NCBI GenBank assembly: GCA_947173495.1
Contig: CAMWFQ010000029.1
Location: 1 to 54,197 of the forward strand
DNA from: an uncultured Lachnospiraceae bacterium
Lineage (GTDB): Bacteria; Bacillota; Clostridia; Lachnospirales; Lachnospiraceae
Length of the DNA stretch: 54,197 nt
Reading direction: 5' to 3'
Shown here: positions 66 through 15,591 of the stretch, piece by piece
How the letters are laid out: each line of letters opens with the position of its first letter
Numbering within the stretch: the stretch's first letter is position 1
The notes under the pieces: model-generated
What the model saw: the letters and a program-made list of their open reading frames with translations, nothing else
Databases searched by the model: none
What the model was told of the DNA's origin: nothing
Made by a program: the position numbers and the translations under genes

Positions 66-305
66 ATGATGGCGGATGAAAAAATCAAAAATTCCAATGA
101 GTTGGAGTTTGCCGTGTTTTGTATTGAAAATGTAGCGGCAAAACTGGGTGTGAATGCAGAGCGTGTTTATCAGGCATTTGCTGAAAAGAGCGATATTCTG
201 AACGGCTATATCGTGCCGGAATATGAAGTGCTGCATACCCAGAGTCGGGAATATATCGTTGACGACCTCCTTGATGTTATGAAAGAAAGGGGTGTGGAAG
301 TATGA
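66..305 (+). CDS. DUF3791-like small protein
   Basis: About 79 residues, acidic and mostly helical by composition, with the stretches LEFAVFCIENVA, SDILNGYIVPEYE and YIVDDLLDVM that I associate with the DUF3791 family. A TTG at 60 is also in frame, but the AAAGGGGGG tract at 50-58 sits directly against it and is well spaced for ATG 66, so I choose 66. The stop overlaps the start of the DUF3990 gene by 4 bases, which indicates translational coupling. Function is unknown. Position before a DUF3990 protein suggests a partner or antidote role, which is inference. Confidence 0.7.
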   Translation: MMADEKIKNSNELEFAVFCIENVAAKLGVNAERVYQAFAEKSDILNGYIVPEYEVLHTQSREYIVDDLLDVMKERGVEV

Positions 306-772
306 TTCTCTATCATGGTCCCTTTTTAGAGATTGCAAAGCCGGATTTGGTTCATTCCCGCCCCAATGTAGACTTCGGGCGTGGCTTTTATGTCACGCCA
401 CTGTATGAACAGGCGGCGAAGTGGTGCGGCAAGTTCAAACGCCGTGGGAAAGACGGCATTATCTCCTGGTATGAATATGATGAAAGCCGGGAAACGGAAC
501 TGAAAACACTGAAATTCGATTTCTATTCCGAAGAATGGCTGGATTTTATTCTGAACTGCCGCAGCGGAAAAGATTCGACCGATTATGATCTTGTTGTTGG
601 CGGTGTTGCCAATGATAAGGTGTTCAATACAGTGGAACTGTTATTTAACGGACTGATTGATAAGACGGAATCAATCAATCGCCTACGTTATGAAAAACCG
701 AACCTGCAAATATGTTTCCGCACAGAGAAAGCATTGCCTCTGCTGCATTTTGAGGGGAGTGAAACACTATGA
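302..772 (+). CDS. DUF3990 family protein, ADP-ribosyltransferase-like
   Basis: 156 residues. The N-terminus has YHG at residues 4-6 and DFGRGFY at 24-30 followed by an EQAAKW helix, the hallmark of the DUF3990 family. From recollection this family has been placed in the ADP-ribosyltransferase fold superfamily; that cannot be verified from sequence alone. It overlaps both neighbours by 4 bases, so the three small genes at 66-1029 form one tightly coupled unit. A toxin or NAD-using effector with small flanking partners is the obvious hypothesis. No signal peptide or membrane segment is visible, so it should act in the cytoplasm. Confidence 0.8.
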   Translation: MILYHGPFLEIAKPDLVHSRPNVDFGRGFYVTPLYEQAAKWCGKFKRRGKDGIISWYEYDESRETELKTLKFDFYSEEWLDFILNCRSGKDSTDYDLVVGGVANDKVFNTVELLFNGLIDKTESINRLRYEKPNLQICFRTEKALPLLHFEGSETL

Positions 773-1029
773 CAGTGAACCCGATTTTACTTCAGAAAAA
801 GTATAGCCGTGTCATTGAGTGCTTTGCCAAACAGCAGGGACTTTCTCTGGATGCGGCATTGGATTTCTTTTATCATTCCGAAGTTTATCAGTTGGTCCGT
901 GAGGGTGTTTCAGATATGCACTGCATGAGCGATGCGTATCTGGCAGAAGAACTGGAACAGGAATATATTGAGAAAAGTGCCGGATACCGAGGAAGGAAAG
1001 AAAGTGACTTATGGACACAGACAAAGTAA
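769..1029 (+). CDS. Small conserved protein, second DUF3791-like member
   Basis: 86 residues beginning MTVNPILLQKKYSRVIECFA and including VSDMHCMSDAYLAEELEQEY. I recognise this as a companion found with DUF3990 proteins, probably DUF3791-related, but the family assignment is less certain than for the first gene. It starts inside the end of the DUF3990 gene (4-base overlap) and its own last 19 bases overlap the start of the truncated pglZ. Function unknown; coupling suggests it binds or regulates the DUF3990 protein. Confidence 0.6.
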   Translation: MTVNPILLQKKYSRVIECFAKQQGLSLDAALDFFYHSEVYQLVREGVSDMHCMSDAYLAEELEQEYIEKSAGYRGRKESDLWTQTK

Positions 1030-1954: not shown

Positions 1955-1982
1955 AAATACAGAAAGAAAACTGGAGATTACA

Positions 1983-2342
1983 ATGGATAAATTTGAGGTG
2001 GAATTTTATACTAAAGATAATGGTGAAAAACCGGCGAAAGATTTTATCCTTGGCCTGGATGTAAAAATGCGGGCAAAAGTTTTGGGAATCATTAACGTGC
2101 TGGAGGAAAAGGGAAATCAATTAAGAGAGCCATACAGTAAACATTTAGAGGATGGAATATTTGAAATCCGTGGAAAAGTGGGAACAGATATAACAAGGGT
2201 TTTATATTTTTTCTACTATGGCAAGAAAATTATAATGACGAATGGATTTATCAAGAAAACGCAGGAGACGCCAAAACAGGAAATAAGGCTGGCAAAATTA
2301 TATCGTAAGGATTATTTGGAGAGGATGAAAGAAAATGAGTGA
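1983..2342 (+). CDS. higB: HigB/RelE-type toxin (Gp49-like)
   Basis: 119 residues from ATG 1983, which has GGAG at 1973-1976. An upstream in-frame start at 1923 would lie inside the promoter and is rejected. The sequence VEFYTKDNGEKPAKDFI, then HLEDGIFEIRGKVGTDITRVLYFFYYGKKIIMTN in pieces, is typical of the phage-derived Gp49-like HigB family, ribosome-dependent mRNA interferases of the RelE fold. The final 8 bases overlap the antitoxin gene. The toxin-first order is the HigBA order. No inactivating change is seen. Confidence 0.85.
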   Translation: MDKFEVEFYTKDNGEKPAKDFILGLDVKMRAKVLGIINVLEEKGNQLREPYSKHLEDGIFEIRGKVGTDITRVLYFFYYGKKIIMTNGFIKKTQETPKQEIRLAKLYRKDYLERMKENE

Positions 2343-2628
2343 ATTTCAGGAATTTTTAAAGGAACAGATGCAGGATGACGAGTTCAAAAAAGAATGGGAA
2401 GATATCCAGCCGGAAATGGATGTGATCCGGGCAATGGTGGATGCAAGGATTTCGCAAAATCTTACCCAAAAAGAACTTGCGGAAAGGACAGGAATCAATC
2501 AGGCAGATATCAGCAAGCTTGAAAACGGAACCAGAAATCCATCCCTTAAACTGTTAAAACGTTTGGCGGACGGAATGGGAATGACATTGAAATTGGAGTT
2601 TGTTCCTAAAAGTCCGGCCAAGGGTTAG
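2335..2628 (+). CDS. higA: HigA-type antitoxin, XRE helix-turn-helix
   Basis: 97 residues. An acidic N-terminal helix (residues 1-35) is followed by an XRE helix-turn-helix around residues 43-80 (LTQKELAERTGINQADISKLENG). It overlaps the toxin by 8 bases and should neutralise it and bind the palindrome in the promoter at 1932-1951. Intact start, length and motif suggest a working pair. Confidence 0.88.
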   Translation: MSEFQEFLKEQMQDDEFKKEWEDIQPEMDVIRAMVDARISQNLTQKELAERTGINQADISKLENGTRNPSLKLLKRLADGMGMTLKLEFVPKSPAKG

Positions 2629-2720
2629 TTATGTGAGACGTATTTTGAACATGGAAGCAGATGCGAAGAGAACGAGAAGGCATTGTTGGCATAAAGAAAA
2701 AGAATGATAGGGTAGGATAA

Positions 2721-2757
2721 AGGATATATTACTTTTGTGTGAGTAATTATCCTTTTT
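2721..2757 (+). terminator. Terminator of the higBA operon
   Basis: A stem formed by 2721-2733 and 2742-2753 (one bulged base) is followed by a run of T residues (2753-2758). It lies about 90 bases after the HigA stop and before the next gene. Confidence 0.65.
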
Positions 2758-2783
2758 TCTAACAATTATTTCTGCCAGGAGAA

Positions 2784-4105
2784 ATGAATATGGATGTACC
2801 ATATAATCTGATTTCAACAATCAGTCCGGAAAAAGGGAAGAAAATAGATGATTTTGATAAGCATTCAAAATATATAGTAAAGATTTCTGCCCCTACCGAT
2901 TTGGCAGAAACGCTTTATGAGTATTCAGAAAATTTTTTTGAAACAGCACATATAATCACAGAGTTTATTTTATATGCGGAGCATCTGGACATTGGAAAGC
3001 TGAACACTTATTTCTTTTCAATTGCTTTTTTATACCGCCATTGCATGGAAATAGGATTAAAGGCAATTGGATTCCAATAAAGGATACACAGGAACGAAAA
3101 AGGTTTGTTCAAAATACACGGCATAATCTATCTGAAATTTTTGATATAATTGTGAATAAAAGTGATCCAATAAGACCGGAGAAAGAATTAGAGTGGCTGA
3201 AAAAGTATTTTGATGATTTGTCACAGACTGACAGAGAATCAGATTCATTTCGGTATCCATTTCATATTGTATGGGAATTAGATGAATGGGAATGGGAAGG
3301 GAAATTCGCCATAAAACCTGTTTTTAGTGACCAGATCCACATAGACTTAATAAAATTCGCAAATAAATTTGAAGCAGCTTATGAGATTATAAAAAAATGG
3401 TATTTAAAGGAGATGGATGATGCTGTTGAGTGGAAAGAGTTAGAACCGGTATTCATAGAAACAGGCGGATATTATTATGGACAATCTGTTGTTGGTTATA
3501 AGTATAGGAGGGCAGAATTTTATCCATATACAAAAGCTTATTTGGAAACAGCAAATTATCTGAAATGGTATATGAAGAAAGAAACCGACCTGGGCAATTC
3601 AGAGTGCAAAGAACGTCTTTTCCTTCCAATGTGCTATTTATATAGAAATTGTGTTGAGCTTAGTCTGAAAACCATTTGGTTTGAGGAAATTGGAGAAGAT
3701 TTTCAAACCAAATGTAAGTTGATGCTGGACAGAAAGCATAGTATTGAGGGAATGTGGAAAAATATTAAGCCATATGTATTGAAATATAGCAAAGACACAG
3801 ATGAGCCGGAGTACATTGAAGTTATTGAAGATTATTGCAGACAAATACATAAAATAGACAGTGATGCAAATAAATTCAGGTATCCTATGGCAAATACCAT
3901 GCAGGTATATTTTCCTCAAAACAAGAGATTTGATTTTATCAATATGGGAGATTTTTTTGAGGCGTTAAATAATATTCTTGATGGCATAGACAGTCAATTT
4001 AATAGTATGAATGAGATAATAGCAGAAATGGAGGCCGAATGCAGAGCTGAGATGGAAGCAGAATATTATGCGGAAATGATGGCTGAAAATAACTACTATT
4101 GGTGA
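2784..4105 (+). pseudogene. Two-repeat HEPN-like gene, frameshifted
   Basis: Two overlapping frames carry one protein. The first (2784-3080) ends with YFFSIAFLYRHCMEIGLKAIGF and the second (joined from about 3074 to 4105) continues with RHNLSEIFDII and later DSFRYP. The second half of the protein repeats this order: FLPMCYLYRNCVELSLKTI, KHSIEGMW, then ANKFRYP. A single missing base near 3050-3075 explains the frame change. The repeated unit, an R-x-C-x-E-x3-K helix followed by a second helix with H, resembles HEPN domains, which include many RNases of abortive systems; that assignment is inference. ATG 2790 is an alternative start better spaced from AGGAG. Confidence 0.6.
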
Positions 4106-4134
4106 ACGGCACAAAATATCACAGGGAGATAAAA

Positions 4135-4848
4135 ATGCAGGATAAAAATTATCGAGAGTATTTTAATTATTACTTAGAGCTGGAAAGGGATTTTATCTCA
4201 ACAGAACCATATGTAACTATAGACAGGGAGAATTTCGATACATTTTCGGTTCAGTTTAATAGAATGTACCAATCTATTTGCAGCGAAATAGACTGTCTGT
4301 TAAAGGAATTATGCAAACAATTGGAAGGTGGAAGTAAAGCTGGAAACATAGGAGCATATTGCAGTGTGATGCAAAAAAATTTCAAGTATTTTAATGATGA
4401 GACTGTTTATTTCTATAAATCAAGAATAGAATTGGAGCCGTGGAAGAACTGGGAAGATAAAAATGCTCCGACATGGTGGACGATGTACAACAAGGTCAAG
4501 CATCATAGAATGGAAACTGACAGCGTAACAAAAAGGCAGTATTATAAGTTCGCTAATTTGGGGAATGTATTAAATGCATTAGCGGCATTATATGTTGTAG
4601 AGGAATACTATGTTTACAGTTATGACTATTCAAAGGAAGTCGAAGTTACAAAAACAATGGAACTGAATCCGCATATATTGGAGGAAGAGATTGATAAAAG
4701 AAAGGGAAGAGCTTTGTCAAGCAGTAAATCACGTAAATGTTGTATGAAACAATGGCAAGATGTTGGTTGTTATCATGCATTTATGGGGCAAGAGTCTTTT
4801 GATGTTTCACGATTAGAAAAAATAATGGATGTCAGAGGAAATAAGTAG
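4135..4848 (+). CDS. HEPN-like hypothetical protein
   Basis: 237 residues from ATG 4135, which has AGGGAG upstream; an earlier in-frame start at 4099 lies inside the preceding gene and lacks a site. A central helical region ends in APTWWTMYNKVKHHR, a W-Y-N-x-x-K-H-x-R pattern I associate with HEPN-like proteins. It begins 30 bases after the frameshifted gene and is probably co-transcribed with it, so the two may have been one system. Composition is AT-rich like the rest of the island. No membrane segment is seen. Function is not established. Confidence 0.55.
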   Translation: MQDKNYREYFNYYLELERDFISTEPYVTIDRENFDTFSVQFNRMYQSICSEIDCLLKELCKQLEGGSKAGNIGAYCSVMQKNFKYFNDETVYFYKSRIELEPWKNWEDKNAPTWWTMYNKVKHHRMETDSVTKRQYYKFANLGNVLNALAALYVVEEYYVYSYDYSKEVEVTKTMELNPHILEEEIDKRKGRALSSSKSRKCCMKQWQDVGCYHAFMGQESFDVSRLEKIMDVRGNK

Positions 4849-5002
4849 TTAGACGGGCATAGTGTGAAAAATAATAGTATTATGCATGCTTTAGATAAAA
4901 TTGCTGTTTGAAGTTGGGTATAAAAATTATCATCTAAAAGGATAGTTATTTTGGATAATAAGTGAATATTGTGAAACATATTCGATTAAAGCCAGATATG
5001 TT

Positions 5003-6380: not shown

Positions 6381-6971
6381 ATGGCTGTATTCCGTATAGA
6401 AAAAACCAGAGATTTCACCGTTATGAGCAACTATCATCTGCGTGACGTGGAACTGTCGCTGAAGGCAAAAGGGCTGTTGTCGCTGATGCTTTCGCTCCCG
6501 GAGGATTGGGATTACACAACGAAGGGGCTTGCCTGTATCTGTAAGGACGGGGTGGATTCCATCACCAGCGCATTAAAGGAGTTGGAGAGCCACGTTTATC
6601 TCACCAGACAGCGCACCCGCTATGGAAACGGACGGTTAGGGGATATCACCTACACGATACATGAAAGGCCGGTGGAGCAGGAAGGAAAGAAAGAATCACC
6701 TAAACCGGGGGATCCTGAACAGGAAAAACCAAAACGGGAAAATCCAATACAGGTAAATCTTAGACAGGCGGGGCCAAGACAGGGGAACCCCGCACAATTA
6801 AATACTAAAGAATCAAATACTGACGGATTAAATACTGATCAATCAATCTATCCGGCGGAGCCGGAGGCGGCAGGCCGCCATGATGGGATAGATAGGGTGG
6901 ATGGGGAGAACAAGACGGAACTTGTGGATGCATACCGTGAAATTATCTGTGAGAATATCGAATACATGTGA
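6381..6971 (+). CDS. Helix-turn-helix protein of integrative elements, C-terminally truncated
   Basis: 196 residues from ATG 6381 (GGAAAGGAG upstream). The N-terminal ~95 residues (FRIEKTRDFTVMSNYHLRD, then LSLKAKGLLSLMLSLP, then GVDSITSALKELE) form the winged-helix domain of replication-initiator-like proteins found in Tn916-like elements. Next comes a low-complexity linker rich in E, P and N. The start of the usual C-terminal domain appears as VDAYREIICENIEYM, where the frame stops. Relatives continue well beyond this point, so the gene has lost its 3' end at the same place where the integrase has lost its 5' end: one deletion joined them. Confidence 0.7.
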   Translation: MAVFRIEKTRDFTVMSNYHLRDVELSLKAKGLLSLMLSLPEDWDYTTKGLACICKDGVDSITSALKELESHVYLTRQRTRYGNGRLGDITYTIHERPVEQEGKKESPKPGDPEQEKPKRENPIQVNLRQAGPRQGNPAQLNTKESNTDGLNTDQSIYPAEPEAAGRHDGIDRVDGENKTELVDAYREIICENIEYM

Positions 6972-7306
6972 AGGATGAGATAGGCAGGATGAAGGTAGTG
7001 GAAGTGAGACCTTCCCATGTGAAGCTGTTTTATGCAAGGCTCTCCAAGGCGGATTATTCCAGAAGCACCATCAAATTGCTCCATGATATGCTCTATCCGG
7101 TTTTTGAGATGGCGGTGGATGACGATATCATAAGGAAAAATCCCTGTAAGATGGCGCTCCGGGATTTCGGAAGAGACCCCAAGGCACGGGAGGCAATCAC
7201 CAATGAACAGCAGGAAAAGCTCCTTGCCTTTGTACGTGAGAGCAATGTTTACAATGTATATTTCCCAATGCTGGTGATCATGATCGGAACAGCCTGCAGG
7301 TGTGGC
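6968..7306 (+). pseudogene. int: Tyrosine integrase, left fragment
   Basis: The frame contains the core-binding domain (DEIGRMKVVEVRPSHVKLFY, then AVDDDIIRKNPCKMAL) and the start of the catalytic domain up to MIGTACRCG, where the Arg is the first catalytic residue. The N-terminal arm-binding domain is missing. At codon 7307 the frame leaves homology and stops 7 codons later. The next expected residues, EIIGLTW, are found 7.7 kb away at 15019. The gene is thus broken at both ends of this fragment. Confidence 0.85.
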
Positions 7307-7319
7307 GACAGCATGGTAC

Positions 7320-7331
7320 TTGTCAATTAAA
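7320..7331 (+). repeat. Left inverted repeat of the inserted cassette
   Basis: TTGTCAATTAAA; its reverse complement with one mismatch is at 15002-15013. It starts 13 bases inside the left integrase breakpoint. Short length means chance cannot be excluded. Confidence 0.4.
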
Positions 7332-7348
7332 TGACATAATGATAAAAT
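7320..7348 (+). promoter_or_regulatory. Likely promoter of the Fic-MBL-protease/NTPase operon
   Basis: TTGTCA at 7320-7325 and TAAAAT at 7343-7348 are 17 bases apart. The -35 element is part of the terminal inverted repeat, so the cassette may bring its own promoter at its very edge. The leader to ATG 7436 is extremely AT-rich and ends with a GGTGG site at 7425-7429. Confidence 0.5.
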
Positions 7349-7435
7349 AGATATAAATTTTATTATTAAAATGGACAAAAATATTTTAATATTAAAAATG
7401 ATGAATATTTATTAACATAAATTTGGTGGTACAAA

Positions 7436-8542
7436 ATGACAAAGGAATTTCAGGCGGGTTACTACAAAATTGAAGTAACAGATATTATAGAAAAGAGGTA
7501 TTGTAATTGTTTCATTCCAATAAGGATTGACAGGTGGTTTGATAGAGTTCAGATGCAATCGGAATATAATGCGCTATTGATGCAGATTTATCGGAAAATA
7601 GGTCATATAGAGGGCATGGTCGCTTTGCTAAATTGTGAAGAAATAGAAAATATTAACGGTCTGATTGACAGAATTAATTTTATGTACTGTCAGCCAGATG
7701 GGAAGCAGGCATTAGATATTTTGAAATTTTTTAGCCAAATTCATGGAGATGAATTAATGATACAATCCTTAAAAGACCAAATAACATTATATTCAGACAT
7801 AAATGTGTTGAGGTCTCGACATAGAAAAAAATTCATTATTTTAAGAAATGTCATTTCTGCATTAAGGGAAGAATTTAATCCGGTTTCACCTGAAAGAATT
7901 GGAGAAAGCATAGATGATTTGCTTGATGTGACATCAAAGTATGCAAATTATTTTAAAAAGCAGAATGATGTGTTGAATCCGATTTTATTTAGTGGATTGC
8001 TTTTGTATCAGTTATTGACATTAGCTCCATATGAACAAAATAATATTGTTTATTCATCTTATGCGGTGGAAAGGTATATGCAAAAGCTAAAAGTATTACC
8101 AGAAGTTTCACTTCCGTTTGCAAAGCTAATCCAAAATAACATAAATGAGTGTGAGGATCGTATGGCAGAGGTAAGATGGTCGTGCAATATAAATCCGTGG
8201 CTAACTTTTTATTTAAACATAATGGATAAGGCGTTGGAAGCAGTATGTAGATTTATTCAGGAGCAACATAAGCATATGGTAACAAGTATAAATGCAGTAA
8301 ACAGAGTAAAAAATATCTCTCCAAATATGAGAAATAAAATGATAATGGAATTAGGGTTCATGCGGCAGATGCCGTTTTTCCGGATAGAAGATGTTATGAA
8401 TCACTGTAGTATTACACACAGCACAGCAGTAAAAATGGTAAATACCTTTATTAAACTGAAAATTGTAAAGCAGACAGATAATAAGCAGAGATACAGGGTG
8501 TATGAATGCATTTCATTGACGGAAAGCATTAGAAGAGTTTAA
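7436..8542 (+). CDS. Fic-fold pseudoenzyme with C-terminal winged helix
   Basis: 368 residues. Layout follows the common Fic proteins: an N-terminal helical region with IYRKIGHIEGMVALL (about 51-65), a helical Fic core (about 155-225), NPWLTFYLNIMDKALEAV, and a C-terminal winged helix (about 309-365) with FRIEDVMNHCSITHSTAVK and IVKQTDNKQRYRVY. Where active Fic proteins have HPFxDGNGR this one reads LAPYEQNNI (196-204), so the catalytic His, the metal-binding acidic position context and the Gly residues are lost and only one Asn remains. The inhibitory S/T-x3-E-G/N motif is also absent (reads FMYCQPDG). It should not AMPylate. It is the first gene of an operon with the MBL and protease-NTPase genes (22-base gap), so a DNA-binding regulator or recognition subunit is likely. 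Confidence 0.65.
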   Translation: MTKEFQAGYYKIEVTDIIEKRYCNCFIPIRIDRWFDRVQMQSEYNALLMQIYRKIGHIEGMVALLNCEEIENINGLIDRINFMYCQPDGKQALDILKFFSQIHGDELMIQSLKDQITLYSDINVLRSRHRKKFIILRNVISALREEFNPVSPERIGESIDDLLDVTSKYANYFKKQNDVLNPILFSGLLLYQLLTLAPYEQNNIVYSSYAVERYMQKLKVLPEVSLPFAKLIQNNINECEDRMAEVRWSCNINPWLTFYLNIMDKALEAVCRFIQEQHKHMVTSINAVNRVKNISPNMRNKMIMELGFMRQMPFFRIEDVMNHCSITHSTAVKMVNTFIKLKIVKQTDNKQRYRVYECISLTESIRRV

Positions 8543-8564
8543 TGAGTGATTAGGAGACTGTAGA

Positions 8565-9746
8565 ATGAAGATTAAAATGATGCCTGCTCAATATGGCGAC
8601 TGTTTTTGGATTTATACAAGTGATAAAATTAATATTTTGGTGGATGGAGGATTAAAATCCACTTATAATCATTGGATAAAGCCCTTAACCTTTTTTGAAA
8701 ATAGATATGAATTGATTTTTGATTTAGTTATTGTAACACATATTGATTGTGATCATATTGGAGGCATTGTTGCTTTTTTGGAAGATTGTGAAAAAAACTG
8801 TCGTGTGGGGTTAAAAGAAATTTGGCACAACGGACTTTTTCAAATTGGAGGGAAAAAGTTTTTAGAGTATTCAGAACGGGATGTAGAACGGGATGAGGAG
8901 ATTTTGAATGCAATCATTCAAAGGGGGTATTTGTCAAGTGAAGAGTCAAATATTGGAGTATCTGAAAGTTTTGCATTAGATGTTTTAATTCAAGAGAAAA
9001 AAGTAGTAAGAAATACAGGAAATAAGAACAGTGCTATTTGTGATAAAACTGGAGAATATAATCTTGGTATAGTAACAAAGATTTTGGTTTTAGGTCCAGA
9101 TAAGGAATCGCTAAATGCAATGGAGAAGTATTGGCAGAAAGAAATGATAGCCAGAAACTATAGATTTCAAGTAACAAATAGAGTAAAATTAATGCAGGCG
9201 TTTGAATTCCAGATGTCTGCAGTGAATAACTATTATGCTCCGTTTGAACTTCAAATAAGTGGTAAAGATTGCATGGAAAGGTACTTAAGCGATTTAGAAG
9301 AGAAAGATATTTCTGTGACGAATCGTAGCTCTATTTGTTTTGTAATTGAGGAGGGAAAATACAAGGTTCTTTTTTTGGGAGATGCAGTGATTTATAATAA
9401 TGGGAGTCTGATGAAGCGGTTAGAAGAAAAATATGGCAAGACATGCCATTTTACAGCTATTAAATTACCGCATCATGGGAGTAGATATAATGTTTCTATA
9501 GATTTTATTAAAAGATATACAGCAGATGAATATTATTTTAGTACCAATTCAGAACGGTTCGGACATCCTGATATAGATGTAATCGCAGATGTAATATATT
9601 ATTCTGGCACTAATAACAAAAAGCTGATTTTTAATTATCCATTAGATGTGATAAAACTATTTGACAGAAATGATTGGAAACAACAATATCATTATGAAAT
9701 TGTTGTGGGAAATGGAAATGAAATAGTCGAAAGGAGTTATGAATAA
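8565..9746 (+). CDS. Metallo-beta-lactamase-fold hydrolase (Avs1A-like, ComEC-type)
   Basis: 393 residues. Residues 1-30 read YGDCFWIYTSDKINILVDGG, then VTHIDCDHIGG gives the H-x-D-x-D-H metal site of the ComEC-type subfamily. Later motifs are VLFLGDA, LPHHGSRYN and FGHPD, all in their normal order, so the active site looks complete. Relatives act as nucleases or phosphodiesterases; the substrate here is not known. It ends 2 bases before the protease-NTPase gene. An MBL protein beside a protease and a STAND NTPase is the gene set of AVAST type I (Avs1) defence. No signal peptide, so cytoplasmic. Confidence 0.8.
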   Translation: MKIKMMPAQYGDCFWIYTSDKINILVDGGLKSTYNHWIKPLTFFENRYELIFDLVIVTHIDCDHIGGIVAFLEDCEKNCRVGLKEIWHNGLFQIGGKKFLEYSERDVERDEEILNAIIQRGYLSSEESNIGVSESFALDVLIQEKKVVRNTGNKNSAICDKTGEYNLGIVTKILVLGPDKESLNAMEKYWQKEMIARNYRFQVTNRVKLMQAFEFQMSAVNNYYAPFELQISGKDCMERYLSDLEEKDISVTNRSSICFVIEEGKYKVLFLGDAVIYNNGSLMKRLEEKYGKTCHFTAIKLPHHGSRYNVSIDFIKRYTADEYYFSTNSERFGHPDIDVIADVIYYSGTNNKKLIFNYPLDVIKLFDRNDWKQQYHYEIVVGNGNEIVERSYE

Positions 9747-9748
9747 AG

Positions 9749-12700
9749 ATGAAAATTTCGAATATATTTTTAACCCAAATACTGTGCCATGATGAAATAG
9801 CAGGAACTGGATTTTTTATAGATTCTAAAACAGTTCTTACTGCTATGCATACCATAACCTCTGACATTGAGGACTTACAATTAAAAGAAGAGAAAGCTGT
9901 AGAGCTTTATATAAATGAGTCAGAAGTTATACAGGCAAAGAGTCTGAATCTTGTAGATGCAATTGACAATAGGGTGGATTGCGTTTTGTTGGGAATAGAG
10001 GAGGTGTTTGAAGAGGGAGAGAAAGTACGTCTGAAAGCTCCGGCAAACACTTTGCAGGATTATGAATGCAAAGTATTTGGTTATCCTAAAGAATTGGGAA
10101 CATTAATTGAGTTAGATGGACAAATTATCAAGAGGGAAGAAATTAATAGTGATTCATATGATATGATTGTGAAGATTAAGAAACAAGATAAACTTCAAAA
10201 TTATGAGGGGATTTCAGGCGGTCCTATCATGATAGGTGGCAATGTAATCGGATTCGCTGTTAAACAGTTATCAGATAATAAAATAGCAGGAATATCTTTG
10301 AAGTGCTTAAAGGAATTCTTGCCAGAAGTATATTCCAATAAGATTGTGGTTTCAAACATTAGAAAAACAGCTATATTACATACTTCTTCATTAGTGGAAA
10401 GGTGTAATTTAGATTTTTTTGAAAACCATTTGAAGCAGGTATTAAATATAGCAGGACCAAGATATGTGTCAGAATTAAATGTTGAGAATGAAACGTTTGT
10501 AACAGTGAATAAAATTCTTGATAAAGAAAGTATTGAAAAAGAAATATTAGAAGCTGAAAGAAAATGGAGTGAACTTTATAAGAAACTTTGCAATAGTATA
10601 GGCAATATAAGGGATACAAAGCATAATTTTTTAAAGAAAAGCGCAGAGGATATTGAAAGAATTACGGGAAAGCTTCAAACAAAATGGAGTTCTTTTAGAA
10701 ACAGAGATTTAGATATGGATTTATTTCGGACGCAGTTGGAATTAGCAGAAAAGGAATTAGAAGTTATTTTTGAAAAAGAATTCCAAAGATTTGAAGAAGA
10801 ATATGGGAAAGGAAACTATAGAAATCGTAGCTGGAAAGGATTTATGGCATCGTATATGTGTACTTTTCCAACATATCATTTGGAAGAATTAGAAGATTCT
10901 ATTGAGTTATGCAAGGTATTGATAAAGCAAATAAATAAAGAATCTATGTACTTATATCAGAAGAAAACTGTATTATTGACAGGCAGAGGTGGAATGGGAA
11001 AAACGCATTTACTCTGTGATATTACAAAGCAATGGATTAGTAATCAAATACCAGCGTTTCTCTTTTTTGGTGAGCAATTTGGCATGAATAATGCATCGGA
11101 GGAGATACTGAAACGATTAGGATTGGAGCAAATTTCGTTCGAAGAATTTTTAAGTTTTTTTGATGAGCTAGCAGAAGAAAAACAATGTTACGTTCCGATT
11201 TGTGTTGATGCATTGAATGAAACAATAAAAAATGACTATTGGAATTCGCAGTTGCTGTCATTAAGTGCGGCGGTTGAAAATTATAGGAATATTAAATTGA
11301 TTGTAAGCTGCCGAAGTATTTATTTGCAAGAGGTGCTTGATGAAGATATAGTAAGCCGTATGGCGATTGTAGAACAAAAAGGGTTTGAGCATGTTGAGAT
11401 TGAAGCCATGCGCCAATTTGGAGAATATTATGGCATTCATTTGAATTTTGATTATTTGCTGCATCAGGAATATAGAAATCCATTGTACTTAAAAATGTTA
11501 TGTGAGGTAGCTCAAACACAAGAAAATTTCCATGCTGAAGCTGGAGATTTGATGAAATTAATGAAGGATTTTTTTGTGATGAAAGATAAAAAGATTTCTA
11601 AGGAGATTTCTATTTCTGTGCGAGAACACATTGTGCAACAAATTTTGGGTATGGTAGCAAATTCTATGATAAAGCAAAATAAAAACTATATTTTGTGGAG
11701 CGAATTGCGTACAATTGTGAAAAAGCTGCTATCAGAATATAGTTGTGAAGGAGATACTCAAAATTTATTGAGGAAACTGCTTTCAGAAAATCTTTTTAAA
11801 GAAGCGGATAATGATAATGAAAGGATTGTTTTCGGATATGAACGTTTTTATGAGATAATAATAGCGCAAAGTGTTCTTGGAGCTACAGAGGATGAAACAA
11901 TTCAAAGAATATATAAGATTCAGGAAAAGCAACAAATGACAATCGGGACGCTTGAATTAATTCAAATACTGTTCATGCGTCAGTTTCAACATGAGATATT
12001 GGAATATATTATTCCGGAAGAATGGGATATCAGATGGATTGAGTCATTTGGGCAAAGTTTGTACTGGAGAACGAATCAAGAAGTGACAAGTGAAACAAAG
12101 AAGTTTGTCAAATATTTTTTGAAAAATAATAAGGAAGAAAAAGTACGTACTATCTTATTAGCAATATTAGGTGTTTCAACAAAAGTAGATTTTGATTTGA
12201 ATGCAGAATACTTGCATACATTTTTGATTAAGCAACCACCATTATGGCGGGATTATTATTTAAGCTTTTTTTTATTAGGAAACTTTGAAAAAGAGAAAAT
12301 AATCTATGATATTTGCATACGCAGTCAAAAATTAGCCAATTATGAGGTTACGGAAAAGGGGGCTCAGTTATGGGCGATTACACTTTCCTGGTTATGCTCT
12401 CTAAATGATATAAAGATACGAGATAATGCAAGCAAGGGCTTAGCCAACTTATTTCGAAAGAATACAAATATTATAATAGCTGTGTTAAATAAATTTAAAG
12501 ATTTGGAAGAAGATTATATTCATGAGCGAATATGGCAGGCGGCATATTCTGCACTTCTTTTGGCAGGGGAGGAGGTGGTGCTGAAAGAGGTAGTTGAATA
12601 TATTGATATACAGTTTGCGAAAAAAGGAGCATGGCCTGAAAACGTTTTAATTCGGGATTATTTATATAAAATTATTGAGTATTCTGTGAATCGAAGGGAA

Positions 12701-14011
12701 TTCCCTGATAGCATGTTAATTACTTATCAACCACCTTATAAGAGTGAGAAGTTGACAAAAGTATCGGAGGAAACATTACAAAAATGGAAAAAGGAAAATG
12801 GCAGGTTATATTTTAACTGCATTGAGAGCGACTTTGCAATATACACAATTCCGTCCGAGGTTGAAGATTATGGATTTTCAAAGAAGGAGATTGGCGGGAT
12901 CATAATGCAAAACATACTCAATAGTGGATATGACGATAATTTAGAAAAATATGATCAGATGATAGATTATAAATATGGTTCTTTGCGCAGCAGAGACTCT
13001 TCGGTTGAAAGAATCGGGAAAAAGTATCAGAAAATATTTTTATATCGATGTATGGGAAGGCTCTACGATAATTATGAGTATAAGTCAAGGTATTCATATG
13101 CTGAGGGTAATTATCCGCTGATCGGAGAACAAGGGACATCTTTTCGTGAAATTGATTTGACAGCATTGCCATATGAAGCAGAAAAAGATGCATTTAGAGC
13201 GAAACAGATTTATTATCCATTTTCCAGGTATCGTGATTTTTCTGATGAAAAATGGTTTCATAAAAAAGATGTCACACAATATTTTGAAAGCTTGTTTTTG
13301 CAAAAGTACAATAGTGATAAATATATGATTTTACAAGGATATTTTCATGATAGAGAAAAAAATTCTCCCAAGTATAGAGAAGTATGGGTGCAGATACGGT
13401 CTTATTTCTTTGGAAAAAAGTATAAACAAAATTTTTTGGATTGGTTAAAGGGAAAGGATTTTGAAGGAAGATGGATGCCGGAAGGAACAAATCATTTGTA
13501 TGAGGTAAGTATTGGTGAATATCCGTGGAGTGAATATATAACACAGTATTTGAGGGAAATGCAGGAAGAACAAAGTTTTAGAGGAAATTCGCCAGCTCCA
13601 TGTCATATTATTCCCACGGTTAACGACTATAATAATGAGAAAGATTCTGAATTTTGTCCGTCCAGTATCGCGGGAAAATTTATGTTTCCATGTAAAGATT
13701 TGTTTGAAGTATTGGATTTAAAGTGGAATGGGAAAAATGGATTTTGTGCAAAAGAAAAACCAGTAGTATATCTTTCGGAAGGAGCTGATAGTGCACTTTA
13801 TATAGATAAGGATTTATTAATAGATTATTTGGAACGTTCGGGGCAAGAAATTGTGTGGACGGTTTTGGGAGAAAAGCAAAAAATTGGAGGTATGGGATTT
13901 CGGGATTTTCCAGGAAGAAGTGAGTTTAGCTATAGTTATTATTGGGACAATGGGCAAATTAAGAGAAATCATGAAGTATTCCATGTGCGTAAGGCACAGT
14001 ATGATGGTTAA
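9749..14011 (+). CDS. Trypsin-like protease fused to STAND NTPase (Avs1B/C-like)
   Basis: 1420 residues. Residues 1-200 form a trypsin-like domain: GTGFFIDSKTVLTAMH carries the His (34), VDCVLLGI the likely Asp (77) and GISGGP the Ser (156), so the triad is complete. A coiled or helical linker follows (about 245-370). The NTPase domain has Walker A GRGGMGKT at 412-419, a Walker B-like PICVDALNE near 480-490 and IVSCRS near 515-522. The C-terminal 800 residues show no named domain but contain helical stretches such as DNASKGLANLFRKN that suggest HEAT/TPR-like repeats, the usual sensor of STAND proteins. By family logic the C-terminus recognises a phage product, the NTPase oligomerises and the protease and MBL act as effectors. 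Fusion of protease and NTPase is unlike the three-gene Avs1 layout I recall. Confidence 0.75.
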   Translation: MKISNIFLTQILCHDEIAGTGFFIDSKTVLTAMHTITSDIEDLQLKEEKAVELYINESEVIQAKSLNLVDAIDNRVDCVLLGIEEVFEEGEKVRLKAPANTLQDYECKVFGYPKELGTLIELDGQIIKREEINSDSYDMIVKIKKQDKLQNYEGISGGPIMIGGNVIGFAVKQLSDNKIAGISLKCLKEFLPEVYSNKIVVSNIRKTAILHTSSLVERCNLDFFENHLKQVLNIAGPRYVSELNVENETFVTVNKILDKESIEKEILEAERKWSELYKKLCNSIGNIRDTKHNFLKKSAEDIERITGKLQTKWSSFRNRDLDMDLFRTQLELAEKELEVIFEKEFQRFEEEYGKGNYRNRSWKGFMASYMCTFPTYHLEELEDSIELCKVLIKQINKESMYLYQKKTVLLTGRGGMGKTHLLCDITKQWISNQIPAFLFFGEQFGMNNASEEILKRLGLEQISFEEFLSFFDELAEEKQCYVPICVDALNETIKNDYWNSQLLSLSAAVENYRNIKLIVSCRSIYLQEVLDEDIVSRMAIVEQKGFEHVEIEAMRQFGEYYGIHLNFDYLLHQEYRNPLYLKMLCEVAQTQENFHAEAGDLMKLMKDFFVMKDKKISKEISISVREHIVQQILGMVANSMIKQNKNYILWSELRTIVKKLLSEYSCEGDTQNLLRKLLSENLFKEADNDNERIVFGYERFYEIIIAQSVLGATEDETIQRIYKIQEKQQMTIGTLELIQILFMRQFQHEILEYIIPEEWDIRWIESFGQSLYWRTNQEVTSETKKFVKYFLKNNKEEKVRTILLAILGVSTKVDFDLNAEYLHTFLIKQPPLWRDYYLSFFLLGNFEKEKIIYDICIRSQKLANYEVTEKGAQLWAITLSWLCSLNDIKIRDNASKGLANLFRKNTNIIIAVLNKFKDLEEDYIHERIWQAAYSALLLAGEEVVLKEVVEYIDIQFAKKGAWPENVLIRDYLYKIIEYSVNRREFPDSMLITYQPPYKSEKLTKVSEETLQKWKKENGRLYFNCIESDFAIYTIPSEVEDYGFSKKEIGGIIMQNILNSGYDDNLEKYDQMIDYKYGSLRSRDSSVERIGKKYQKIFLYRCMGRLYDNYEYKSRYSYAEGNYPLIGEQGTSFREIDLTALPYEAEKDAFRAKQIYYPFSRYRDFSDEKWFHKKDVTQYFESLFLQKYNSDKYMILQGYFHDREKNSPKYREVWVQIRSYFFGKKYKQNFLDWLKGKDFEGRWMPEGTNHLYEVSIGEYPWSEYITQYLREMQEEQSFRGNSPAPCHIIPTVNDYNNEKDSEFCPSSIAGKFMFPCKDLFEVLDLKWNGKNGFCAKEKPVVYLSEGADSALYIDKDLLIDYLERSGQEIVWTVLGEKQKIGGMGFRDFPGRSEFSYSYYWDNGQIKRNHEVFHVRKAQYDG

Positions 14012-14079
14012 AACATGGATTTTGATAAGGTATATGAAATACAGGGATTATTTTGTTCAATAAAATGATTTTGTTACCC

Positions 14080-14094
14080 TTGATGAATCATCAA
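14080..14094 (+). promoter_or_regulatory. Palindromic operator candidate before the zeta-toxin module
   Basis: TTGATGAATCATCAA is a perfect palindrome around one central base, 23 bases before the antitoxin start. Its position suggests a binding site controlling the toxin-antitoxin pair. No convincing -35/-10 pair was found next to it. Confidence 0.5.
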
Positions 14095-14117
14095 TAAAAT
14101 GAAAGGTGGTATAAAAT

Positions 14118-14336
14118 ATGAGTTCGGATTATATAACAGATGAGCAGGTAGTAAAACGTGCGAATGCAGCAGTAGGGCTTGAAATAGAAAAATTGAAAGC
14201 AATGGGAGCGCCGGTTATAATTTATGACAGAAAAAAACAAGTTGTGGTAAGACGCAATAATGACGGAACAGAAACAGAGGTAGGGAAACGATTGCGAAAG
14301 GGGAACTATAGTGAACGAATTGAAAAAGAAATCTGA
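14118..14336 (+). CDS. Putative antitoxin of the zeta toxin
   Basis: 72 residues beginning MSSDYITDEQVVKRANAAVG, with a basic, mostly beta or extended C-terminal half (IIYDRKKQVVVRRNNDG). It has a GGTGG site upstream and its end overlaps the zeta-toxin start by 26 bases, the arrangement of antitoxin-toxin pairs. It is not the classical epsilon fold by eye; the role is inferred from position. Confidence 0.6.
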   Translation: MSSDYITDEQVVKRANAAVGLEIEKLKAMGAPVIIYDRKKQVVVRRNNDGTETEVGKRLRKGNYSERIEKEI

Positions 14337-14910
14337 GATTGTTATTTTTGCCGGTCCGAATGGTTCAGGTAAAAGTACATTTACGTCATTATTGAAGCCC
14401 TCAATGGATTATATTAATGCAGATGAAATTAAGAAAATATTGAAATGTTCAGATTTTGAAGCTGCAAAATTGGCTGAAAAACAAAGAGAAGAACATTTGA
14501 AGAATATGGAAGATTTTTGTTTTGAAACAGTTCTTTCTACAGATAGAAATTTGAATCTGTTAAAAAGGGCAAAGGAAAAAGGGTATTTTATCCGATGTTA
14601 TTATATCCTTACTGCAGATCCAATGATAAACATTTTTCGTGTCAGGGCACGGGTAGAGGTTGGCGGACATGATGTTCCAGATGATAAAATTATTAGCCGT
14701 TTTGACAAAGCACTGGCATTAGTACATGAGGTAGTTGGTGTCTGTGATATTTGTCATATATATGACAATTCTGAAGACAGACCCTATCGGATTTATAAGA
14801 AGAGAAAAGATCGGTCTTTTTATGATACGTGTGATGATTGGAATAAAGAAGATATATTTTATCTAACGCAGGATATGAATGCAGAGAAAAAGAATTTGAA
14901 TGATAATTGA
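14311..14910 (+). CDS. Zeta-toxin family kinase
   Basis: 199 residues. IVIFAGPNGSGKSTFTS holds the P-loop (about 15-23), YINADEIK the conserved acidic residues, FETVLST the substrate region, and RVRARVEVGGHDVP the second nucleotide-binding and Arg element typical of the family. Zeta toxins phosphorylate UDP-N-acetylglucosamine or related nucleotide sugars; the exact substrate here is unknown. All motifs are present, so it should be active and need the small protein encoded just upstream. It is the last gene of the inserted cassette and may stabilise it by addiction. Confidence 0.85.
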   Translation: MNELKKKSEIVIFAGPNGSGKSTFTSLLKPSMDYINADEIKKILKCSDFEAAKLAEKQREEHLKNMEDFCFETVLSTDRNLNLLKRAKEKGYFIRCYYILTADPMINIFRVRARVEVGGHDVPDDKIISRFDKALALVHEVVGVCDICHIYDNSEDRPYRIYKKRKDRSFYDTCDDWNKEDIFYLTQDMNAEKKNLNDN

Positions 14911-14931
14911 GTAAAAAGAATAGAGAAACTG

Positions 14932-14970
14932 AAAAGCATCACGAAGGGCTAGTCTTTTGGTGATGCTTTT
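14932..14970 (+). terminator. Terminator at the end of the inserted cassette
   Basis: AAAAGCATCAC (14932-14942) pairs perfectly with GTGATGCTTTT (14960-14970). The run of T at the end and flanking A make it a likely bidirectional terminator after the zeta-toxin gene. Confidence 0.7.
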
Positions 14971-15001
14971 CCTTTGCAGAAAAAGAATATTTTTTTTAGT
15001 T

Positions 15002-15013
15002 TTTACTTGACAA
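15002..15013 (+). repeat. Right inverted repeat of the inserted cassette
   Basis: TTTACTTGACAA, the reverse complement of 7320-7331 except for one base. It ends 5 bases before the integrase frame resumes. Confidence 0.4.
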
Positions 15014-15018
15014 AAGCA

Positions 15019-15591
15019 GAGATCATAGGGCTTACGTGGTCGGATATTGACATGAAAAATAAACAGGTCAGCATCAACCATCAGCTTATCTACAGGAATC
15101 TGGGAGAAGGGAACAGGCTCTGTGTTACAGCTCCCAAGACCGAGGCAGGCGTAAGGGATATTCCCATGACAGCCAGTGTCAGAAAGGCTTTTGAAAAGCA
15201 ACGGGAATATCAGTTCATGATGGGGATAGACAGGGATTATGAAGTGGATGGTATGAAAGGCTTTATTTTCACCAGCAAGAATGGACGCCCCTTACAGCCC
15301 AACGCAGTCAACAACGTACTTTACAATATCGTGGATGCTTATAATAAGCAGGAAACGGCGAAAGCGAAAAAGGAGCACCGCAAGCCGGAGATGATGCCGA
15401 GAATATCAGCCCATATTTTAAGGCATACAGGATGTACCAGAATGGCGGAGCGTGGGATGGATGTAAAGGTATTGCAGTACATCATGGGGCATGCAAATAT
15501 CGCGGTCACTATGGAAGTTTATAATCATATCACGGAATATGCGAGAATAGAAAAGGAAATATTGAAGATGGAAGACCTGATGGCGATATAA
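15019..15591 (+). pseudogene. int: Tyrosine integrase, right fragment
   Basis: The frame resumes with EIIGLTWSDIDMKNKQVSI and runs to the normal C-terminus. It holds the rest of the catalytic set: HILRHTGCTR (His and second Arg), GHANIAVTMEVYNHIT (His and the nucleophilic Tyr). The first catalytic Arg is on the fragment at 6968-7306. An ATG at 14974 in frame could start translation, but it lies in the insert and the product would lack the first Arg and all DNA-binding domains. The neighbouring repeat at 15774 is where this enzyme family is expected to act. Confidence 0.88.

What the first reader, a model, noticed from the sequence alone, without database searches (positions are those of the whole stretch)
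7436..14011. Pseudo-Fic + MBL hydrolase + protease-STAND fusion: a variant AVAST type I defence operon
Seen: three same-strand genes with gaps of 22 and 2 bases encode a Fic-fold protein without its active site, an MBL-fold hydrolase with a complete H-x-D-x-D-H site and a 1420-residue protein with a full trypsin-like triad and a P-loop NTPase. Known: MBL, trypsin-like protease and STAND NTPase are, to my recollection, the three components of AVAST type I (Avs1). Inference: this is a compact two-effector Avs1 relative with an added Fic-derived subunit. The extra gene and the fusion are not part of the Avs1 I know.
Basis: partly seen in the sequence, partly recalled or inferred. Interest (0 to 1): 0.88.

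Follow-up and report, generated by a model that had tools for sequence, protein, structure and literature searches.

The report
Avs2-type phage sensor with protease-activated nuclease
Two of the three genes look like a bacterial phage alarm in which a sensor protein carries a protease that should cut and switch on a DNA-shredding partner enzyme, while the third gene, a dead relative of a Fic enzyme, seems to belong to the mobile element that carries the alarm and that has inserted into another mobile element's integrase gene.

Summary
(1) MBL plus trypsin-STAND fits the published 'gated nuclease-protease pair': the MBL has the metal motif and two loop isoleucines 101 residues apart, near the positions mapped in HamM and Avs1a. 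(2) The STAND part is Avs2-type, not Avs1: it aligns along its length with Avs2, and with Avs1b only in the protease. Fusion is normal in Avs1b, so it is not the oddity; the Avs2-type sensor is. A second MBL + trypsin-Avs2 pair lies on a gut contig with no Fic-like ORF. (3) The Fic-like protein is catalytically dead but under purifying selection. In four other genomes copies 91-94% identical have other neighbours. It sits at the left end of a mobile element, 7.7 kb in the window, that interrupts a tyrosine-integrase gene at the conserved Glu codon. The right end closely matches that of elements carrying three large serine recombinases, one of them in the same genome (there with a split second recombinase). 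I read pseudo-Fic as the element's regulator rather than an Avs subunit (inference). New variant of a known kind.

The parts
6968..7306 (+). N-terminal part of a Tn916/phage-type tyrosine integrase, interrupted at the GxRxG|E motif; the ORF runs on into the element to 7330
   Evidence: ORF list; the two halves joined as protein align in one piece with a plasmid integrase over residues 1-286 of 303 at 36.5%
7307..7435 (+). left end of the mobile element: GA, then CAGCATGGTACTTGTCAATTAAATGA..., including a promoter-like site 7320-7348
   Evidence: 88-94% identical over 136 bases in the genomes of L002-L005, starting where the integrase breaks; promoter match 10 of 12, weak evidence because the scan found 51 against 38 expected
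7436..8542 (+). pseudo-Fic protein, dead Fic core plus C-terminal winged-helix-like region
   Evidence: SoFic 2.3e-16; lost HPFxxGNGR; dN/dS 0.19-0.23 against close copies; winged-helix reading from a poor model
8565..9746 (+). MBL-fold pro-nuclease; loop isoleucines I130 and I231
   Evidence: Avs1a 1.5e-68, LmuA 2.8e-67; NCBIfam Avs1a 270 bits, below its cut-off of 420; alignment with other MBLs
9749..10438 (+). trypsin-like protease domain of the fusion, triad H34-D77-S156
   Evidence: Pfam Trypsin 9.9e-6; alignment with Avs1b proteases
10439..14011 (+). Avs2-type STAND NTPase and C-terminal sensor region
   Evidence: PADLOC Avs2 2.4e-189; PDB 9o4e residues 387-1037 and 1051-1410
14118..14336 (+). 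small ORF, possible antitoxin of the next gene
   Evidence: read by eye from the sequence; no Pfam (E 0.01) or PADLOC (E 0.1) family for its first 64 residues
14311..14910 (+). zeta-toxin-like P-loop kinase
   Evidence: Pfam Zeta_toxin 9.2e-8
14985..15020 (+). right end of the mobile element, TTTTTTTTAGTTTTTACTTGACAAAAGCAGA
   Evidence: the same or near-identical end in L002, L005, L119, L125 and in serine-recombinase-trio elements L121, L122, L124, L126, L134
15019..15591 (+). C-terminal part of the interrupted integrase, resuming at the Glu codon
   Evidence: XerC 8.1e-14; joined alignment

Best explanation
Genes 2 and 3 form a two-gene abortive-infection system. The Avs2-type STAND sensor binds a phage protein (terminase or similar, by analogy), assembles, and so activates its fused trypsin domain; this cuts the MBL protein after I130 and I231 in its two gating loops and frees a DNase that destroys phage and host DNA. 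It is the known nuclease-protease effector module placed on an Avs2-type sensor. Gene 1, the pseudo-Fic, is not a dedicated subunit: it is the conserved first gene of a small mobile element (serine-recombinase type by its GA junctions, without its own recombinase) that carries exchangeable cargo, in part defence-related, and sits at the catalytic-region Glu codon of another element's integrase gene. Its probable job is to regulate the cargo through its winged-helix region. Shown: domains, motifs, gene order, ends, recurrence of the parts. Inferred: all activities, the cut sites, the trigger, the role of pseudo-Fic, trans-mobilisation.
For: Family matches. MBL metal motif and loop isoleucines at positions and spacing like those given by Tuck et al.. 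Protease-only similarity to Avs1b. A second MBL + trypsin-Avs2 pair, collinear over residues 19-1387 at 22.6% identity. Pseudo-Fic with other neighbours in 4 of 4 other close loci. Ends at GA in the Glu codon of integrase genes that differ in DNA. Serine-recombinase trio beside the same type of right end, also in the window's own genome. Purifying selection on pseudo-Fic.
Against: No activity was tested. HamM and the Avs1a studied in print were not aligned; equivalence of the cut sites rests on position, spacing and conservation among five plasmid MBLs. The second isoleucine falls one column off in a gap-rich loop, and the other MBL of this kind (L132) has Val at the first site. The left end was not found in the serine-recombinase elements, and in the window's own genome the second recombinase is split into two ORFs. 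The last 40 or so bases of Fic show a break (67% identity), which suggests that the Avs pair followed a Fic relative before and leaves room for a real functional link. The structure model of pseudo-Fic is poor (mean pLDDT 52). Low GC does not mark the insert alone: bases 2001-5000 to its left are as low (0.34-0.35).
Confidence: 0.68

Rival explanations
1. One reading: a three-gene Avs1 relative in which the Fic-derived protein is a working subunit (for example an adaptor or inhibitor of the nuclease or the sensor).
For: Tight gene spacing (22 and 2 bases); conserved dead Fic under selection; recombination scar at the Fic 3' end, as if the Avs pair had followed a Fic relative before.
Against: STAND is Avs2-type; 0 of 4 close Fic copies stand beside MBL or Avs; the other MBL + trypsin-Avs2 pair has no Fic-like ORF on its contig.
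Confidence: 0.15
2. Pseudo-Fic works with whatever defence cargo follows it, as a guard or repressor that keeps a toxic effector off until infection, with a direct effect on defence (overlaps with the main explanation).
For: Pseudo-Fic genes precede different cargoes, several of them defence-type: Avs2 (window), SIR2 (L004), nSTAND3 beyond a transposase-like ORF (L005 second copy); more distant degenerate Fic genes lie near RhuM-type genes and, in L061, a KAP NTPase.
Against: Direct adjacency varies; in L002-L005 recombinase-type sites lie between Fic and cargo; the two cargo proteins tested from L002 match no PADLOC family; no interaction data.
Confidence: 0.3
3. The locus is a decaying passenger: a broken element in a broken integrase, with no working defence.
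For: No recombinase inside the element; integrase interrupted; neighbouring ORFs that look frameshifted.
Against: All three ORFs are intact with complete motifs for MBL, protease and P-loop; dN/dS about 0.2 for pseudo-Fic.
Confidence: 0.12

Closest known systems
Nuclease-protease pairs (Tuck et al. 2025, PMC12799240; HamMAB, EpiAvs1)
   Same: Separate upstream MBL gene, trypsin domain fused to the N-terminus of a defence protein, loop isoleucines about 100 residues apart
AVAST type I (Avs1a-Avs1b-Avs1c)
   Same: MBL (33-34% identical to the two best plasmid Avs1a) next to a trypsin-STAND fusion
   Different: STAND and sensor not Avs1b-like, fusion 1420 instead of 1910-1939 residues, no Avs1c found
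AVAST type II (Avs2)
   Same: STAND and C-terminal region along about 1000-1200 residues
   Different: Trypsin instead of the N-terminal part of the models, plus a separate MBL gene; below the NCBIfam cut-off (552 against 1000)
SoFic (Fic AMP-transferase, defence-listed)
   Same: Fic core and C-terminal region, E 2.3e-16
   Different: Catalytic motif absent
Tn5397/Tn4451-type elements with large serine recombinases
   Same: GA dinucleotide at both junctions; the third trio recombinase beside the shared right end is related to TndX over 95% of its length at about 31%
   Different: The window element has no recombinase; the target is the integrase Glu codon

Membership tests
AVAST type I (Avs1) | Avs1a MBL by curated model | tested here: not met
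   NCBIfam NF041809 270 bits against cut-off 420; PADLOC Avs1a 1.5e-68 but LmuA nearly equal
AVAST type I (Avs1) | Avs1b protease-STAND, whole length | tested here: not met
   54.6 bits, residues 10-228 only, cut-off 1500; blastp to 4 Avs1b-position proteins gives the protease region and only short weak pieces elsewhere
AVAST type I (Avs1) | Avs1c small third gene | tested here: not met
   next ORFs are a small ORF (first 64 residues: no PADLOC or Pfam family; unlike four Avs1c proteins by eye) and a zeta-like kinase
AVAST type II (Avs2) | Avs2 STAND and sensor by homology | tested here: met
   PADLOC 2.4e-189; PDB 9o4e 6e-76, to residue 1410
AVAST type II (Avs2) | NCBIfam Avs2 equivalog cut-off | tested here: not met
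   551.6 bits against 1000
AVAST type II (Avs2) | recognition of a phage protein such as terminase | not testable with these tools
   needs experiment
Gated nuclease-protease pair | separate MBL gene upstream of a fused trypsin domain | tested here: met
Gated nuclease-protease pair | conserved isoleucine in each of two loops, at the place of the mapped cut sites | tested here: inconclusive
   I130 same column in 6 of 6 sequences, Val in L132; second site Ile followed by S or T in 7 of 7, but one column off for the window; HamM and EpiAvs1a themselves not aligned, positions from passages
Gated nuclease-protease pair | cleavage activates DNase | not testable with these tools
   needs biochemistry
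Fic AMP-transferases (SoFic) | HPFx(D/E)GN(G/K)R motif | tested here: not met
   window APYEQNNIV; motif kept (once with HPI) in 24 of 25 class-level hits other than the window, the 25th being a fragment that misses it
Large-serine-recombinase transposon | GA at both ends | tested here: met
Large-serine-recombinase transposon | own large serine recombinase | tested here: not met
   no such ORF among those of 80 aa or more between 7309 and 15018; a trio lies elsewhere in the genome, at G000:C4, its second member split

The most novel reading that the evidence does not exclude
A family of small mobile elements specialises in the conserved Glu codon of integrase genes of other mobile elements. 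Each is led by a pseudo-Fic regulator and carries exchangeable modules, anti-phage ones among them, and is moved in trans by serine-recombinase-trio elements with the same type of right end. Insertion disables the host element's integrase while the cargo guards the cell; precise excision could restore an intact integrase in copies whose integrase is otherwise whole, so the element could act as a switch of mobility.
Probability: 0.3. Interest if true: 0.75.

Novelty: new variant of a known kind. Interest (0 to 1): 0.5.

Why it matters
It shows the protease-nuclease effector pair on an Avs2-type sensor, which fits the published model of modular transfer between defence systems. It also gives a testable case of defence genes travelling on an element that breaks integrases of other mobile elements, and of a dead Fic protein kept by selection as a probable regulator. 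If the trans-mobilisation holds, it would link turnover of defence genes to conflict between mobile elements.

Tried and rejected
Considered and rejected: membership in Avs1 (STAND and Avs1c tests failed); membership in SoFic (motif lost); the 306-aa tyrosine recombinase of L002/L003/L005 as the mover of the element: not supported, since its family often lies beside its own GATAA...TTATC sites, of which the window has none by the pattern used.

Led nowhere: viral-contig scans for the left end, pseudo-Fic and the MBL; phage and plasmid searches for pseudo-Fic, which gave no phage hit and only annotated Fic family proteins on 2 plasmids at 22.5%; plasmid search for the left end; left end in the serine-recombinase elements; structure model of pseudo-Fic, mean pLDDT 52, not used for fold search. 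Paper searches on insertions in integrase genes and on degenerate Fic showed no paper on this combination in the listed titles and abstract starts; one search listed mostly unrelated papers.

Of 44 listed matches (up to 2 mismatches) to the right-end 20-mer in 38 of 397 genomes, against 11 for the reversed pattern, I examined 33: 30 fetched loci, the window, G000:C4 and G264. Six of the 33 adjoin an integrase C-half by tblastn or reading (L104, L110, L117, window, L121, L122). The other 27 do not, and 11 were not looked at, so the 20-mer alone is a poor marker; it contains a promoter-like TTGACA.
Full report
What is there. Three intact same-strand ORFs with gaps of 22 and 2 bases: pseudo-Fic 7436-8542, MBL 8565-9746, trypsin-STAND 9749-14011. 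GC is about 0.32-0.34 across these genes and about 0.46-0.53 from 15001 on, but bases 2001-5000 to the left are also low, 0.34-0.35. Behind them come a small ORF, which I read from the sequence, and a zeta-toxin-like kinase.

MBL and protease. The MBL matches Avs1a (1.5e-68) and LmuA (2.8e-67) about equally in PADLOC and stays below the NCBIfam Avs1a cut-off; the only solved relatives by sequence are ComEC-type competence proteins (3.7e-8). In Tuck et al. 2025 (PMC12799240; I saw the outline, passages found by word search, and part 1 of 2 of the Results) such MBL proteins are DNase pro-enzymes opened by a fused trypsin domain. It cuts HamM after isoleucines 118 and 218; the cut-site mutants of the Avs1a studied are I134K and I234K. 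In an alignment of the window MBL with five plasmid MBLs the first isoleucine (I130) is in the same column in 6 of 6. The second (I231, followed by Ser) is matched by Ile-Ser or Ile-Thr in the others, one column off for the window in a gap-rich loop. In a seventh sequence, L132, the first site is Val and the second is kept. HamM and EpiAvs1a were not aligned themselves. The metal motif is kept in 7 of 7. The protease triad H34, D77, S156 is complete.

Sensor. Residues beyond about 220 match Avs2 models (PADLOC 2.4e-189; NCBIfam 552 bits, cut-off 1000), and residues 387-1410 the solved Avs2 9o4e at 6e-76. Against the four plasmid proteins in the Avs1b position blastp finds the protease region, and beyond it only short weak pieces. 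In those four Avs1 loci the protein is a single long gene of 1910-1939 residues, named avs1b in two and 'serine protease' in two, followed by a small Avs1c; in three of them a P-loop follows the protease within the stretch I aligned.

Recurrence of the pair. Contig MT836073 (13 kb, labelled a phage, from human stool; some ORFs look conjugation-related to me) holds an MBL gene overlapping by 4 bases the start of a 1356-aa trypsin-Avs2 protein, collinear with the window's fusion over residues 19-1387 at 22.6% identity. It has no Fic-like ORF by profile search. In 295 genomes of the order, 4 including the window matched the fusion at 1e-20, and none of the other three matched its protease part. 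Of 67 plasmid records that match the fusion, none of the 25 listed shows a match that starts before residue 212. Lysinibacillus has an MBL next to a protein with the Avs1b-type protease domain, annotated as NACHT.

Pseudo-Fic. Fic core and C-terminal region align with SoFic, but the active site is gone. Of 16 family genomes with a match at 1e-6 (397 searched), the window and two others (L006, L018) have degenerate motifs and 13 keep it. Of 26 class genomes with a match at 1e-10 (391 searched), 24 of the 25 besides the window keep it and one is a fragment that misses the motif. Close copies give dN/dS 0.19-0.23, so the protein is maintained. In the poor model, residues 296-355 show the order helix, strand, helix, helix, strand, strand, at mean pLDDT 73-89 up to residue 350, as in a winged helix; this is a reading, not a test.

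Neighbours of pseudo-Fic. One genome-collection scan gave four loci at 91-94% identity. None has MBL or Avs next to it. L002 and L003: an SHMT-like protein and a 776-aa (L003: 772) P-loop protein, without PADLOC match for the pair tested from L002. L004: a SIR2-like protein, cut by the contig end. L005: frameshifted Fic and short ORFs, then a second pseudo-Fic (50% identical) and, beyond a transposase-like ORF, an nSTAND3 protein. More distant degenerate Fic genes stand beside RhuM-type genes (L060 by Pfam, L061 by resemblance), the latter also near a KAP NTPase. The window's Fic region matches L002 and L005 at 87-100% per 60 bases until the last 40 or so bases, which drop to 67%, while L002 and L005 agree there: a likely recombination point, by which the Avs pair may have come with the tail of another Fic gene.

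The element. Left of pseudo-Fic all five loci share sequence that begins where a tyrosine-integrase ORF breaks, at GG(N)|GA. The left flanks are three different integrase genes: L002/L004 and L003/L005 are each about 95% alike, these two groups share only a 64-base match at 75-78%, and the window matches neither. On the right, an end of the type TTTTACTTGACAAAAGCA|GA leads back into an integrase at the Glu codon of GxRxGE. The two halves in the window align as one integrase. The same or a near-identical right end, running into an integrase C-half, follows a trio of large serine recombinases in the window's own genome (L121, second recombinase split in two ORFs), a same-genus genome (L122), G076 (L124), G240 (L126) and a viral-collection contig (L134), and stands without recombinases in L125. 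Of these C-halves, seven (window, L002, L119, L121, L122, L125, L134) were compared as DNA: 2 of 21 pairs gave a match, of 19 and 29 bases. So the same codon was hit in many different integrase genes. The third recombinase is related to TndX over 95% of its length at about 31%. In Bacillus subtilis the target of TndX of Tn5397 always has a central GA, and Tn4451 recombines at 2-bp identities (passages of PMC4430133 and PMC5704250; a passage of PMC4735348, agrees on GA). I therefore read the window unit, about 7307-15020, as a serine-recombinase-type element without its own recombinase. The left end was not found in the trio elements, so mobilisation in trans is inference.

Mechanism. Most likely: a phage protein is sensed by the Avs2-type part, the fusion assembles, trypsin is activated, the MBL is cut in its gating loops, and DNA is destroyed. 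Each step is by analogy with PMC12799240 and, for Avs triggers, with statements in PMC12931631 (passages). Pseudo-Fic probably regulates transcription from the left end; I give that about even odds within the main explanation.

Prior art and novelty. The words Avs2 and Fic were not found in the main text of PMC12799240; its supplements could not be read, and Gao et al. 2022 is not held. A trypsin-type Avs2 may be listed there; I only recall that Avs N-termini vary. Hence 'new variant of a known kind', not more.

Noticed in passing
L002 2576-2640 and 6334-6398, L003, L004 7145-7209, L005 10257 and 12267; L021-L050: A 306-aa tyrosine recombinase family (86 of 397 genomes at 1e-40) often has GATAA-N5..8-TTATC sites within 250 bases 3' of it (18 of 30 loci, against 2 of 30 on the 5' side; no shuffle control); such sites also flank the cargo behind pseudo-Fic, and in L047 an ORF that looks TIR-like to me follows the site: possibly an integron-like cassette platform.
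   Followed up: partly
window 302-1029: DUF3990 protein (PADLOC candidate PDC-M13) with a DUF3791-like neighbour (just below its Pfam cut-off): likely another toxin or defence module.
   Followed up: no
window 1971-2628: Gp49-like and HTH pair, a probable HigBA-type toxin-antitoxin system (the HigBA label is mine).
   Followed up: no
window 2784-4105: Two overlapping ORFs (98 and 354 aa) in different frames that look by eye like one gene with a frameshift.
   Followed up: no
L005 14191-15330: Second pseudo-Fic directly behind the right end of the first element: two related elements in tandem in one integrase gene.
   Followed up: partly
L124 5017-5268; similar sequence in L121 about 4037, L122 about 2231, L138 about 1568: A DUF6870 gene precedes the serine-recombinase trio (Pfam for L124 only; the others by DNA similarity).
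   Followed up: no
literature, PMC4430133 passage: Tn5397 itself is reported to insert into a Fic-domain gene in C. difficile; perhaps a coincidence, but curious beside an element that starts with a Fic-like gene.
   Followed up: no
G1041 8119-12877 (record behind L134): A second, inverted run of three related serine recombinases just beyond the first trio and the integrase C-half.
   Followed up: no
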